Part shown: piece by piece, positions 5,911-8,864 of the stretch
Position numbering within the stretch: the first letter of the stretch is position 1
How the letters are laid out: every line of letters starts with the position of its first letter
DNA from: Silvibacterium acidisoli
GTDB taxonomy: Bacteria > Acidobacteriota > Terriglobia > Terriglobales > Acidobacteriaceae
Direction of reading: 5' to 3'
Length of the DNA: 64,000 nucleotides
Assembly: GCA_022870745.1 (NCBI GenBank)
Contig: CP085323.1
Coordinates: 248,001-312,000, forward strand
Notes under the pieces: generated by a model
Told to the model about the DNA's origin: nothing
Database searches by the model: none
The model's input: the letters and a program-made list of their open reading frames with translations, nothing else
Made by a program: the position numbers and the translations under genes

Positions 5911-7230
5911 CTATGCTTCCATCGCACGAATGTAGCCGAGGATAGCCTCGCTCCATCCATCGATGTGTGTCCATTCACCATAGCCAACACCATTGCGGTA
6001 GCTGGCTACGTTGATCATGTATCCACGACCCGCCGGGCCGGAAACACGGTCGCGCGACTGCTCATCCGTGATCACGATCAACCGGTCATACGATGACGGC
6101 AGCCCGGCCAGCGCCCGGCCGAGTTGCGTGCCACCGTGCGGCTGGCTGTTCACGATCGCATCGCGCAGTGCGAAGCCGCGACGATTCGGAACCAGCTTGA
6201 GGTTTTCCGAAAAGGTGTAAACGCTCACCTCTTCGGAGATCTCACGCAGCAACACGGCGAGACCCGCAGCCGCATCCATGCGCACCATCTCCGAACGGGC
6301 AGACAGCCGCGCATCCATGCTTCCGGAAACGTCGACCAGCAGTACCGTGCGGCCGGTCAGCGCAGCCTGGCCACGGAGGCTGGCGAACATGGCCTGCTCG
6401 ATCCACGGCTCCCACTGCGGTGCATGACGCGCGGCAGCAAGAAAGCGGAAAGGCAGAACACGCTCGACACGGATCATCTCCAGTGCCTGCCGTACCAGCT
6501 CCGGCTCAACGCCCGCGGCCTGCATGTTGCGCAGGTTACGAAGCAGAGCGAGCGCGCCGAGGCTGTTCTCCACCAGCATCGACTCCCACACCTCGCGCTT
6601 CTGCTCACCGCGCGACAAACGCACCTCCCACGTCTCCGGAGAAGGCAGCGTGCCGTCGATCAGCTGACGCCACAGCAGCGCCTGGTCCGCGGTGAGCGGC
6701 TTGGCATGCGTGAGAAAGAGCACGTCGCGCAGCTTCACCGGCCCGCTGCGGTCATACTTCGCCAAAGCGTAGGCGTCGAACTTCGCGAAAGCTGCTGCGA
6801 GTCCCTTCTTCACCTGCGCGGAGAGTGGCTGGCGTCCGTCCTTCCAGTAGATGGCAAGGAACTCAGCCAACTCGTCCGCACGCTGGATCACGCGAGCGAG
6901 CGTTTCGGCCACAAGCGCACGATGGGTTGCAGAACGCGCCATCTCACGAACAAGCAACAGCGGCGCATGACGCAGCTTCATCGCCTCGCGCGCTTCCACT
7001 GCGAGCGCAGCGACCTGCGCCGCATCCACGCGCGGAACCAGCTTCGCGATGCGCTCGGCAATGGTTTCGCCATCCTCGTAGAATTGGTCTTCCCACAGCA
7101 TGCAGGCAAGCACAGTACGGCGAAGCTGTGCCTCCGCGCTGATCGCCACAGCCGGCGCACCTTCATAGGTACGCAGAGGCGCTCCCGTGAATCCGAGATG
7201 GCTGAGCTTTAAAACATTCAGGCGCGACAT
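5911..7230 (-). CDS. rsr: TROVE/VWA-domain RNA-binding protein (Ro60/Rsr family)
   Basis: 439 residues from the ATG at 7228-7230, chosen because AAGGAC lies upstream; longer in-frame starts at 7284 and 7296 have no better signal. The N-terminal two thirds match the TROVE (HEAT-repeat ring) module of Ro60 proteins. The C-terminal VWA domain carries an intact MIDAS: DVSGSM (residues about 300-305), the GGT Thr near 368 and ITDEQS near 388. Ro/Rsr proteins form a ring that binds ends of misfolded RNAs in the cavity and Y RNA on the outer surface; in Deinococcus and Salmonella they work with Y RNA and exonucleases such as PNPase in RNA decay and rRNA maturation. Here four Y-RNA-like units and a small Cys4 protein lie upstream on the same strand, which strongly supports the assignment. 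No RtcB/RtcA RNA-repair genes are adjacent. Confidence 0.93.
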   Translation of the reverse strand: MSRLNVLKLSHLGFTGAPLRTYEGAPAVAISAEAQLRRTVLACMLWEDQFYEDGETIAERIAKLVPRVDAAQVAALAVEAREAMKLRHAPLLLVREMARSATHRALVAETLARVIQRADELAEFLAIYWKDGRQPLSAQVKKGLAAAFAKFDAYALAKYDRSGPVKLRDVLFLTHAKPLTADQALLWRQLIDGTLPSPETWEVRLSRGEQKREVWESMLVENSLGALALLRNLRNMQAAGVEPELVRQALEMIRVERVLPFRFLAAARHAPQWEPWIEQAMFASLRGQAALTGRTVLLVDVSGSMDARLSARSEMVRMDAAAGLAVLLREISEEVSVYTFSENLKLVPNRRGFALRDAIVNSQPHGGTQLGRALAGLPSSYDRLIVITDEQSRDRVSGPAGRGYMINVASYRNGVGYGEWTHIDGWSEAILGYIRAMEA

Positions 7231-7316: not shown

Positions 7317-7631
7317 TTATTCATCATCCGCCTCGGGCTTCTCAATCTTCAAAACCGCGCCGCCGAAGCCGGTGCGGCCATTGCCCTTCTTCACGTCGAT
7401 GACAAATGCGATCTTCTGCATCTCGTAAAGAGTCGGCGTGAGCTTATCGAGAAAATCGGTGCAGCGGCTGACCGCATAGGCGACAAGCCTAGGGCTGTCG
7501 TAGAAGAAACCGCAGCGAACCTCTTCCTCGCTGTCGGCATAACCGCTCTGAATGTGCGCGTGACGGCAGTTGCGGCAGAGCGATTCCTGCCCGACCGCCG
7601 TGCCGTTACGCACACTGATCGTGGTGCTCAT
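7317..7631 (-). CDS. Small four-cysteine protein between Y RNAs and rsr
   Basis: 104 residues; ATG at 7629-7631 with AGGAG ten bases upstream. Four cysteines, Cys19-x2-Cys22, Cys40 and Cys57, with nearby His24 and His26, suggest a small zinc- or iron-sulfur-binding fold. The C-terminal part is hydrophilic and basic around KKGNGRTGF. I recognise no named family. It lies 86 bases upstream of the rsr-like gene and 35 bases downstream of the last Y-RNA-like unit on the same strand, so it is probably co-transcribed. A role in RNA handling with Rsr is inference from position only. Confidence 0.75.
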   Translation of the reverse strand: MSTTISVRNGTAVGQESLCRNCRHAHIQSGYADSEEEVRCGFFYDSPRLVAYAVSRCTDFLDKLTPTLYEMQKIAFVIDVKKGNGRTGFGGAVLKIEKPEADDE

Positions 7632-7666
7632 GATGTTGCTCTCCTGCCGGTTAAGGGTTGAAGGTT

Positions 7667-7799
7667 TGCGCCGGGGTACAGGCAGAACGGGTGTTATGAC
7701 GATTGCTCTTCCTCTGAGCTAATGCGCGTTACCACGCATGCAGGACTCGAACCTGCGACCTATCGATTAGAAGTATCCCGTTCTTACGCCACCGGCGCA
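7667..7799 (-). ncRNA. Y-RNA-like ncRNA unit 4, with full circularly permuted tRNA-like tip
   Basis: On the minus strand TGCGCCGG (7799-7792) pairs perfectly with CCGGCGCA (7674-7667). A bulged U and GG/CC follow, then an internal loop and an 8-bp helix AGAACGGG/CCCGTTCT. The invariant ATACTTC comes next. The tip then holds, in order: CGAT, a five-base AGGTC, a T-arm GCAGG-TTCGAGT-CCTGC, ATGCGTG, a GTAA tetraloop, CGCGCAT, TA, a D-arm GCTC-AGAGGAA-GAGC, A, ATCG. This is a tRNA in permuted order, with the acceptor stem closed by the tetraloop and the Y stem taking the place of the anticodon arm. Known YrlA-type bacterial Y RNAs carry such tRNA-like modules. Folding was done by eye; ends are those of the terminal helix. 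Confidence 0.85.
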
Positions 7800-7810
7800 G
7801 TTACAAATAT

Positions 7811-7902
7811 GCAGTCCCCAGGGATAAGCGGCCCGGGTGGTGGTTCGCTCACCACCAAGGTTTGAGCGCGAAGTATCCCGAGCCTTCGCCACTGGAGACT
7901 GC
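7811..7902 (-). ncRNA. Y-RNA-like ncRNA unit 3, hairpin/pseudoknot tip
   Basis: Terminal helix of 11 bp with one wobble: GCAGTCTCCAG (7902-7892) with CTGGGGACTGC (7821-7811). Then a bulged U plus GG/CC, an internal loop, and an 8-bp middle helix GGCTCGGG/CCCGGGCC with one wobble, followed by the invariant ATACTTC. The tip is a 6-bp hairpin GGTGGT-GAGCGA-ACCACC whose loop is complementary to an upstream CGCTC, so a pseudoknot or an alternative hairpin is possible. There is no TTCRA-type loop, so this unit is not an obvious tRNA mimic. It is separated from unit 4 by 11 bases and from unit 2 by 6. Confidence 0.8.
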
Positions 7903-7908
7903 TGTTTA

Positions 7909-8023
7909 GCGCCAGGGAAGAATCGTGCGCGGCTTACCGGACGCATTGCTGCGAACGGTGCGGGGTCGAACCGCCTTGCCTTAAATGGGCTACCGAAGTA
8001 TCCGCACACTACGCCACTGGCGC
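7909..8023 (-). ncRNA. Y-RNA-like ncRNA unit 2, partial tRNA-like tip
   Basis: Terminal helix GCGCCAG (8023-8017) with CTGGCGC (7915-7909), bulged U plus GG/CC, internal loop, then an 8-bp middle helix GTGTGCGG/CCGCGCAC with one wobble, followed by ATACTTC. The tip has a T-arm-like hairpin GCGG-TTCGACC-CCGC, whose loop keeps the canonical TTCGA, next to an acceptor-like stem (ACCG, two mismatches, CGCA) capped by a GCAA tetraloop. No D-arm is visible, so the mimicry is half of that in unit 4. A small hairpin GCC-CATTTAA-GGC lies between ATACTTC and the T-arm. Confidence 0.8.
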
Positions 8024-8032
8024 ATCTCTCTA

Positions 8033-8113
8033 TGCAGTGCGAGGGAACGATCGCGACACGGCAGGTTTCATGGACAGATGAAGTATCCGTGCCCTGCACC
8101 ACTCGCGCCTGCA
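8033..8113 (-). ncRNA. Y-RNA-like ncRNA unit 1, minimal form
   Basis: Terminal helix TGCAG/CTGCA and GCGAG/CTCGC separated by a small internal loop, bulged U plus GG/CC, then a 7-bp middle helix GGCACGG/CCGTGTC with one wobble, followed by ATACTTC. The tip is only a short hairpin TTCAT-CTGTCC-ATGAA, so this unit holds little beyond the shared core. It is first in the direction of transcription. A loop reading CTTCATC superficially resembles an anticodon loop with TCA, but no cloverleaf surrounds it. Confidence 0.75.
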
Positions 8114-8366
8114 AAGAATTTGGATTTTCGCTTGAGTTGCTGGATTCAGCAGAGGATCTAACGCAGCTTAACGATTTGCGTCAGGAAGCAGAAGCCAGCC
8201 ATAGCTCAGCGCAAAATCCTGCACTGGCATTGTCTGGTGACCGAATTGGGTTTTGGTGGTCATTGTGGTTTCCTCTGCTCGAAATACAGTGCCACAGGTC
8301 GCCTGTTGAGATCAAGCGTTATTACAAAATATTTTTATTTGTAACCGATGTGGTTTCAAATAGAAG
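8114..8366. other. Leader region upstream of the Y-RNA cluster
   Basis: About 250 bases between the DUF4188 gene and the first Y-RNA-like unit, all transcribed leftward. The right part is AT-rich and holds the candidate promoter and palindrome described at 8322-8359. The remainder shows no gene. If the promoter is real, the leader before unit 1 would be about 210 nt. Confidence 0.5.
8322..8359 (-). promoter_or_regulatory. Candidate promoter with overlapping palindrome for the Y-RNA/rsr operon
   Basis: TTGAAA on the minus strand (8359-8354) and TAAAAA (8337-8332), spaced 16 bases, resemble -35 and -10 elements. A perfect inverted repeat TTACAAA-N9-TTTGTAA (8322-8344) overlaps the -10, as an operator would. 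It is the most AT-rich spot in an otherwise GC-rich neighbourhood. Assignment is inference from sequence; the regulator is unknown. Confidence 0.35.
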
Positions 8367-8864
8367 CTACTGCGGCGACACGACCGAATCTACTTCGCCG
8401 AGACGCGACTTCGCGCTCTGCAATCTGCCGATCGCCGGAAGCATCTCACCCGCTTTCGCCAGGCCGAACTGGGGCATGTTCGCATAGACACACTCATACG
8501 CGCCGTTTTTGACCAGGTAGGTTTCATGAAAGATGCCAACGGCTCCATTTCCGCCCACACGGCGGTTGAATGCCGCCCATGCTGGCAGATGTTCCAGGTT
8601 TTTGGCGTGCGCGTAGGCATGCAACTGCTCGAAACTGCGCCAATACTGAATCGTCATCAGTGTGCGTCCGCCCAGGTAAGCCGAAGCGTCCAGCAACCCC
8701 ATCTCGGGATGCTTCGCCAGTTCCCGCAACATGCGCGGCATTGCCGCGGCCACCGGCATCCACTTGTGCGGCAGCAGAAAATAATTGATCCGCATGCCGA
8801 TGATGAAGACGACGAAGTCCCCGTCGATCTTCGCAGTAAAGCGTCCCTTGTGAATCGGCGGCAT
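8367..8864 (-). CDS. DUF4188 family protein (monooxygenase-like fold)
   Basis: 165 residues, full length for the DUF4188 family, which belongs to the dimeric alpha/beta barrel superfamily and is often labelled monooxygenase or phenylacetaldoxime dehydratase-like. Typical stretches are FVVFIIGMRIN (residues about 18-28), LMTIQYWRSFEQLHAYA (69-85) and the FHETYLVKNGAYECVYANMP segment (112-131). ATG at 8862-8864 has GGGAGG five bases upstream. It follows the esterase gene at 8878 by 13 bases on the same strand, suggesting one transcript. The substrate is unknown. Confidence 0.8.
   Translation of the reverse strand: MPPIHKGRFTAKIDGDFVVFIIGMRINYFLLPHKWMPVAAAMPRMLRELAKHPEMGLLDASAYLGGRTLMTIQYWRSFEQLHAYAHAKNLEHLPAWAAFNRRVGGNGAVGIFHETYLVKNGAYECVYANMPQFGLAKAGEMLPAIGRLQSAKSRLGEVDSVVSPQ

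What the first reader, a model, noticed from the sequence alone, without database searches (positions are those of the whole stretch)
7667..8113. Cluster of four tandem Y-RNA-like ncRNAs upstream of an Rsr/Ro60-type gene
Seen: four adjacent units on the minus strand (7667-7799, 7811-7902, 7909-8023, 8033-8113), spaced 6-11 bases. Each has its own perfect or near-perfect terminal helix, a bulged U followed by a GG/CC extension, an internal loop beginning with YGNA, a middle helix of 7-8 bp and then an invariant ATACTTC. Helix sequences differ between units while pairing is kept (middle helices GGCACGG/CCGTGTC, GTGTGCGG/CCGCGCAC, GGCTCGGG/CCCGGGCC, AGAACGGG/CCCGTTCT), which is covariation inside one locus. 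Known: Ro/Rsr proteins bind Y RNAs through a conserved bulged helix, and bacterial Y RNA genes lie next to rsr. Inference: this is a four-member Y RNA array, the shared core being the Rsr-binding site. I am not aware of so many distinct Y RNAs in one array.
Basis: partly seen in the sequence, partly recalled or inferred. Interest (0 to 1): 0.95.

Follow-up and report, generated by a model that had tools for sequence, protein, structure and literature searches.

The report
Four bacterial Y RNAs beside Rsr
This soil-bacterium locus encodes four small structured RNAs, one of them a tRNA look-alike, next to the gene for the Ro60-type ring protein they probably bind; such arrays turn out to be common rather than unique, but this set has kept its four distinct members, in order, across related species.

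Summary
Four RNA units lie in tandem on the minus strand (7667-8113), upstream of a small Cys4-protein gene and a true Ro60/Rsr gene, and are the only strong copies in the 5.36-Mb genome. The same core occurs in about 100 of 105 fetched rsr loci. With 3' arms chosen by motif alone, 77% of helix positions pair in register against 34-47% when slid. Across 120 family genomes the core and TROVE co-occur (23 both, 1 core only, 2 TROVE only).

These are bacterial Y RNAs. The heptamer is HUACUUC family-wide. Array size is not exceptional: three to five core sites per locus are common, one MAG has seven, phage CcrColossus eight.

Less expected: the four members have orthologues in conserved order, with single members lost in some lineages; a conserved 31-codon leader ORF; a Terriglobia Cys4 protein; and orphan unit-A-like Y RNAs beside or inside tRNA arrays, with RtcB and Hen1 in two genomes. 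Transcription, Rsr binding and function remain untested.

The parts
8033..8113 (-). Y RNA unit A (first in transcription order): shared Rsr-type core, short upper loop, no tRNA features
   Evidence: sequence and fold, R1 51 bits, orthologues
7909..8023 (-). Y RNA unit B: shared core, upper half with a T-arm-like hairpin (GCGGTTCGACCCCGC) and a second hairpin
   Evidence: (78 bits)
7811..7902 (-). Y RNA unit C: shared core, hairpin upper half
   Evidence: z -5.2; 56 bits
7667..7799 (-). Y RNA unit D: shared core, permuted tRNA-like upper half (T arm, acceptor-like hairpin, D arm); YrlA type
   Evidence: RF02553 39.8 bits, E 3.5e-7 over 7681-7784, model 1-114; R1 73 bits
7317..7631 (-). P0002, 104-aa protein with four invariant Cys (C19, C22, C40, C57), Terriglobia rsr-locus partner
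   Evidence: no family match; homologues
5911..7230 (-). rsr (Ro60 orthologue: TROVE ring plus vWA/MIDAS). Open frame runs to TTG 7296; homologues support the ATG at 7230
8168..8263 (-). conserved leader ORF of 31 codons (MTTKTQFGHQTMPV...) about 55 nt before unit A, with a GAGGAA Shine-Dalgarno-like sequence
8284..8359 (-). putative promoter region: promoter-like hexamers 8359-8331, and blocks conserved in five relatives (TATTTGTAAC on the + strand at 8336-8345; CCTGTGGCACTGTAT on the - strand at 8298-8284)

Best explanation
The locus is a Ro/Y RNA operon read from the minus strand: leader ORF, four Y RNAs (A-D), a Cys4 protein (P0002), then Rsr. Each Y RNA uses the same lower half (about 8-bp end helix, bulged U, GG:CC, asymmetric 4/7-nt loop, second helix, HUACUUC) to sit on the Rsr ring, and carries a different upper half: short loop (A), T-arm hairpin (B), hairpin (C), permuted-tRNA module (D). 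Shown here: the structures, their covariation, linkage and co-occurrence with Rsr, the orthology of the four members and the YrlA match of D. Inferred from known Ro RNPs: Rsr binds the shared half, bound Y RNAs gate the ring, the upper halves recruit different partners (D perhaps PNPase or tRNA enzymes, as for YrlA), and the RNAs are cut from one transcript. One ring protein would thus form up to four RNPs that act on structured or damaged RNA. The confidence given is for identity as Rsr-partner Y RNAs; about 0.5 for a PNPase-tether role of D, and about 0.3 for four distinct client or partner specificities.
For: Rsr is genuine. About 100 of 105 rsr loci carry the core (93 by pattern, seven more by model). 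Covariation with motif-only arm choice. Only four strong copies genome-wide, all at rsr. Core and TROVE co-occur in 23 of 25 TROVE genomes and 1 of 95 others, P 2.6e-21. Where rsr is a remnant (G117) no core remains, and where it is truncated (G040) only a 22-bit possible remnant is seen. YrlA match. Core geometry parallels the vertebrate Ro60 site: helix, single bulged pyrimidine, three extra nucleotides on the other strand (PMC4726728). H197 of Rsr aligns with Ro60 H187, needed for Y RNA binding (PMC11277228). In bacteria Rsr binds the lower stem of Y RNA, and Y RNA tethers Rsr to PNPase (PMC4726728, PMC7790460, PMC8394870).
Against: No transcript, binding or functional data. The Rfam YrlA score is below the gathering cut-off, and A, B and C have no Rfam match. 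Ro60 residue R174 is not conserved in place (S184, with R183 adjacent). A few orphan units lie far from rsr, one in a genome without TROVE. Single members are lost in relatives, so none is indispensable.
Confidence: 0.93

Rival explanations
1. The units are cis-acting structures in the leader of the P0002-rsr mRNA (attenuator or autoregulatory Rsr site) rather than free small RNAs; the leader ORF would be part of that control.
For: Same strand, directly upstream, no terminator between the units; a conserved leader ORF precedes them. Autoregulation by Rsr binding its own leader would also conserve the core.
Against: Each unit is closed by its own end helix and has a separate orthologue; unit D carries a tRNA-like module known from free YrlA; orphan copies occur away from rsr with no rsr downstream. 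The two roles are not exclusive.
Confidence: 0.05
2. Degenerate tRNA genes: remnants of a tRNA array next to rsr.
For: T- and D-arm sequences in D and a T arm in B; weak tRNA match of 15 bits; orphan relatives sit in real tRNA arrays.
Against: ARAGORN finds no tRNA here; A and C have no tRNA features; the non-tRNA core is what is conserved and covaries; the arm order is permuted, as in YrlA.
Confidence: 0.01
3. The conserved feature is protein-coding: minus ORF 7767-8114 or plus ORF 7837-8487.
For: Open frames exist.
Against: No Pfam match for the minus ORF; orthologous units differ in length and by indels that are not multiples of three; helix covariation.
Confidence: 0.01
4. Y RNAs bound to Rsr, but acting mainly as decoys or inhibitors for tRNA-cleaving or tRNA-modifying enzymes rather than as ring gates and PNPase tethers.
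For: Unit D mimics tRNA; the Salmonella YrlA tRNA-like domain was proposed as a possible inhibitor of an anticodon nuclease (PMC7790460); orphan unit-A-like RNAs sit in tRNA arrays, with RtcB and Hen1 in two genomes.
Against: A and C lack tRNA features, and D is lost in relatives that keep Rsr; this genome has no RtcB.
Confidence: 0.15

Closest known systems
YrlA / bacterial Y RNAs with Rsr (Rfam RF02553; Salmonella, Deinococcus, Mycobacterium)
   Same: Encoded with rsr; closed end helix with an inner helix, then AUGCUU (RF02553) or AUACUUC (here); permuted T arm, acceptor-like hairpin and D arm in unit D.
   Different: Scores below the Rfam cut-off in all family genomes. Three of the four units lack the full tRNA-like module. 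No RtcB in this genome.
Rhodococcus plasmid Y RNAs beside TROVE (L144)
   Same: YrlA matches; UACUUC after the inner helix; weak R1 matches of 26-31 bits.
   Different: Lacks the GGYGNAG core of this subfamily.
Vertebrate Y RNAs (hY1, hY3, hY4, hY5)
   Same: End helix, single bulged pyrimidine on the 5' strand, three-nucleotide excess opposite, variable upper loop (PMC4726728); four clustered genes (PMC11277228).
   Different: Sequence GGUCCGA is not the core here; no Rfam match to Y_RNA at E up to 5. Bacterial Y RNAs are described as not homologous to the vertebrate clades (PMC4726728).
Salmonella rsr-yrlBA-rtcBA RNA-repair operon
   Same: rsr and more than one Y RNA in one operon (PMC7790460).
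   Different: No RtcB in this genome; P0002 instead; four Y RNAs upstream of rsr.

Membership tests
Bacterial Y RNA (Rsr partner RNA) | Gene linked to rsr/TROVE | tested here: met
Bacterial Y RNA (Rsr partner RNA) | End helix formed by 5' and 3' ends, with conserved bulged core | tested here: met
Bacterial Y RNA (Rsr partner RNA) | Binds Rsr | not testable with these tools
   No binding data; pull-down or gel shift needed.
Bacterial Y RNA (Rsr partner RNA) | Expressed as a discrete small RNA | not testable with these tools
   No RNA-seq available.
YrlA (Rfam RF02553) | Score above the curated gathering cut-off of 69 bits | tested here: not met
   Unit D scores 39.8; no family genome passes the cut-off, though rsr-linked hits reach 60 bits.
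YrlA (Rfam RF02553) | Full-length alignment with T arm, acceptor-like hairpin and D arm in permuted order | tested here: met
   Unit D only: model 1-114, E 3.5e-7 in 801 bases.
Vertebrate Y RNA (Rfam RF00019) | Match to the family model | tested here: not met
   No match at E up to 5 in 7600-8400.
Ro60/Rsr protein | TROVE domain and vWA domain with MIDAS (DxSxS) | tested here: met
   Pfam TROVE 52.9 bits, cut-off 23; D322, S324, S326 invariant.
Ro60/Rsr protein | Ro60 ring fold | tested here: met
   AF2 pLDDT 81.8; the 13 best PDB fold matches are all Ro60/Rsr, TM 0.59-0.71 by query.
RYPER (Rsr-Y RNA-PNPase complex) | Y RNA tethers Rsr to PNPase | not testable with these tools
   Needs co-purification.

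The most novel reading that the evidence does not exclude
One Ro60 ring is equipped with a fixed, orthologous repertoire of four Y RNAs with different effector halves plus a new Cys4 protein subunit, giving several RNPs with different clients: a bacterial parallel to the four-gene vertebrate Y RNA cluster in which the tRNA mimic is optional.
Probability: 0.3. Interest if true: 0.65.

Novelty: new member of a known kind. Interest (0 to 1): 0.45.

Why it matters
Why one Ro60 ring needs several Y RNAs is an open question. Here four members persist as orthologues in conserved order, and relatives carry natural deletions of single members, which makes member-specific function testable. The core model detects rsr-linked Y RNAs that Rfam's YrlA model scores below its cut-off or misses, including phage units annotated as tRNAs. 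It also exposes a candidate protein partner and Rsr-distant Y RNAs in tRNA/RNA-repair arrays.

Tried and rejected
Pairing of the 5' GAAG loop with CUUC of the heptamer: rejected, because the third loop base varies (A, C, T) while CUUC is fixed. A general UUCG tetraloop at the heptamer: only unit B fits. A sigma54 promoter at TGGCAC: judged by eye, the spacing does not fit. The first scanner chose 3' arms by pairing and so was partly circular (156 of 287 real sites passed, against 10-12% of swap and shuffle controls); pairing was therefore retested with motif-only arms. The P0002 fold failed (pLDDT 37), so no structural claim is made for it; zinc binding is only suggested by four Cys. No PADLOC match for Rsr or P0002, so no support for a defence role. 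Chen 2014 and the Sim and Wolin 2018 review are not held, so earlier descriptions of multi-Y-RNA arrays could not be checked. In one search the rsr query had P0001 and P0002 joined by mistake; rsr positions there agree, and the remnant loci were re-searched with separate queries. The pattern count of tRNA-like units is approximate: it misses the D arm of L002 unit D.

Full report
OBSERVATION. The four units are present at the stated coordinates on the minus strand. In transcription order they are A 8033-8113, B 7909-8023, C 7811-7902 and D 7667-7799. RNA folding returns the described architecture in each; folding energy beats all 200 shuffles for C and D, 198 of 200 for B and 181 of 200 for A, so energy alone does not establish A. 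A covariance model built from 25 units of this and other species, searched through the whole genome, gives four strong hits, all here (E 1.9e-13 to 1.5e-7), and nothing else better than 0.36. The four belong to the training set, so their scores are by construction; their exclusivity in the genome is not.

NEIGHBOURS. The downstream ORF has TROVE (E 4e-14) and vWA matches. By profile it is related to phage Ro60, human and Xenopus Ro60 and D. radiodurans Rsr, and its AlphaFold2 model (pLDDT 82) has Ro60/Rsr structures as its 13 best Foldseek hits. Xenopus Ro K170 and H187 align with K180 and H197; R174 aligns with S184, with R183 adjacent. H187S loses Y RNA binding according to PMC11277228; the roles of K170 and R174 are from memory. 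Between the RNAs and rsr lies P0002, 104 residues with four invariant Cys and no family match. It occurs in 18 of 120 family genomes, 16 of them with TROVE. Upstream of unit A lies a 31-codon ORF (8168-8263) with homologues in the same place in relatives, preceded by conserved promoter-like blocks.

COMPARATIVE EVIDENCE. In 105 loci around TROVE genes the core plus UACUUC occurs 287 times on the sense strand and 4 times on the antisense; 93 loci have at least one, and the model adds seven more (L009, L022, L063, L067, L075, L078, L118). To avoid circularity the 3' arm was then chosen only by a single TTCCC motif: 86 non-redundant units from 53 loci pair at 1082 of 1376 helix positions, against 781 +/- 14 after permutation, and 77% in register against 34-47% when slid. 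Outer H1 positions carry up to four Watson-Crick types each. Consensus: H1 - U - GG - YGNA - H2 - HUACUUC - variable - H2' - NNNNGUU - CC - H1'.

CO-OCCURRENCE. Of 120 family genomes, 23 have both core and TROVE, one only the core (G069) and two only TROVE (G051, at a contig edge; G082, a different TROVE type); Fisher P = 2.6e-21. In a 297-genome phylum sample the six core-positive genomes all have TROVE, while the nine TROVE genomes outside this family lack the core. In G117, same genus, only a 40-residue rsr remnant survives and there is no core hit; in G040 rsr is reduced to a 107-residue match and only a weak possible remnant (22 bits) is seen. Genomes are related, so the P values overstate independence; the covariation and the co-losses are separate lines of evidence.

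THE FOUR MEMBERS. Orthologues of A-D lie in the same order in L002, L004 (with G400) and G066. Same-type units of different species average 68% identity, different-type units of one species 52%, and every unit's best match is its own type in another species. Members are lost singly: D in G119, most of C and all of D in Acidobacterium sp. S8, B in G401. D is the YrlA-type tRNA mimic: full-length RF02553 match, 39.8 bits, in permuted order T arm, acceptor-like hairpin, D arm. B keeps a T-arm hairpin; A and C have no tRNA features. By pattern, 70 of 93 loci have a unit with both T- and D-arm motifs, an approximate count. Acidobacterium sp. S8 (G070) and G119 keep Rsr and other Y RNAs without any strong YrlA match in the genome (9.6e-4 away from rsr in G070, none in G119), so the tRNA mimic looks optional in this family.

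HOW IT PROBABLY WORKS. The shared half is the likely Rsr site. Its geometry (helix, single pyrimidine bulge on the 5' strand, short helix, three-nucleotide excess on the other strand) parallels the vertebrate Ro60 site (PMC4726728), though the sequence differs. HUACUUC is present in units with and without tRNA features, so it belongs to the common half; its role is unknown. The upper halves are then exchangeable effectors. In D. radiodurans a Y RNA tethers Rsr to PNPase and gates the ring (PMC4726728, PMC7790460), and YrlA's tRNA-like domain is modified by tRNA enzymes (PMC8394870). Extending this to unit D is inference; partners of A, B and C are unknown. No terminator separates the units, so processing from a common transcript is likely but not shown.

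NOVELTY. Bacterial Y RNAs beside rsr are established, with more than one per operon in Salmonella (yrlBA; PMC7790460). Arrays are common in the loci examined here: Bradyrhizobium loci typically show four core sites and MAG L007 seven, and Caulobacter phage CcrColossus has eight. The window is therefore a new member of a known kind. Less expected are the stable orthologous four-member set, the optional tRNA mimic, the Terriglobia Cys4 partner, and orphan Y RNAs in tRNA arrays with RtcB and Hen1.

LIMITS. No expression or binding data were available. The founding comparative paper (Chen et al. 2014, RNA 20:1715) is not in the held library, so overlap with its list could not be checked.

Noticed in passing
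L149 4026-4102 (-), L150 3999-4075 (+), L151 4006-4081 (+), L152 2151-2226 (-): Orphan 76-77 nt unit-A-like Y RNAs far from rsr. In G069, G056 and G029 the RNA lies between two tRNA-Gln genes of a 13-24 gene tRNA array; in G069 and G056 RtcB and, in G069, Hen1 RNA-repair genes follow. G069 has no TROVE gene. In L152 two tRNA genes follow directly.
   Followed up: partly
window 7317-7631 (-): P0002 family: small protein with CxxC-C-C, in 18 of 120 family genomes, 16 with TROVE, no family name in Pfam, NCBIfam, PHROGs or PADLOC.
   Followed up: partly
window 8168-8263 (-): Conserved 31-codon leader ORF (MTTIFQFGYQMQP-like in relatives) just upstream of the Y RNA array.
   Followed up: partly
L141 1716-2917; L142 2370-2965: Phage rsr genes carry Y RNA arrays (eight units in Caulobacter phage CcrColossus, four or five in Xanthomonas phage 10KY502B); one unit in each is annotated as a tRNA gene.
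   Followed up: partly
L003 4250-4592; L127 3300-3827; L156 1-900: Natural deletions of single array members: C and D in Acidobacterium sp. S8 (a short C remnant is left), D in G119, B in G401.
   Followed up: partly
window 7800-7810 and 8336-8345: TTTGTAAC just before unit D, and TATTTGTAAC (+ strand) in the promoter region, recur in relatives in inverted orientation; possibly a regulatory site.
   Followed up: no
L146 6432-7553 (G040); L158 4780-4899 (G117): Decayed rsr loci: truncated rsr with intact P0002 and a 22-bit Y RNA-like remnant in G040; a 40-residue rsr remnant without Y RNAs in G117.
   Followed up: partly
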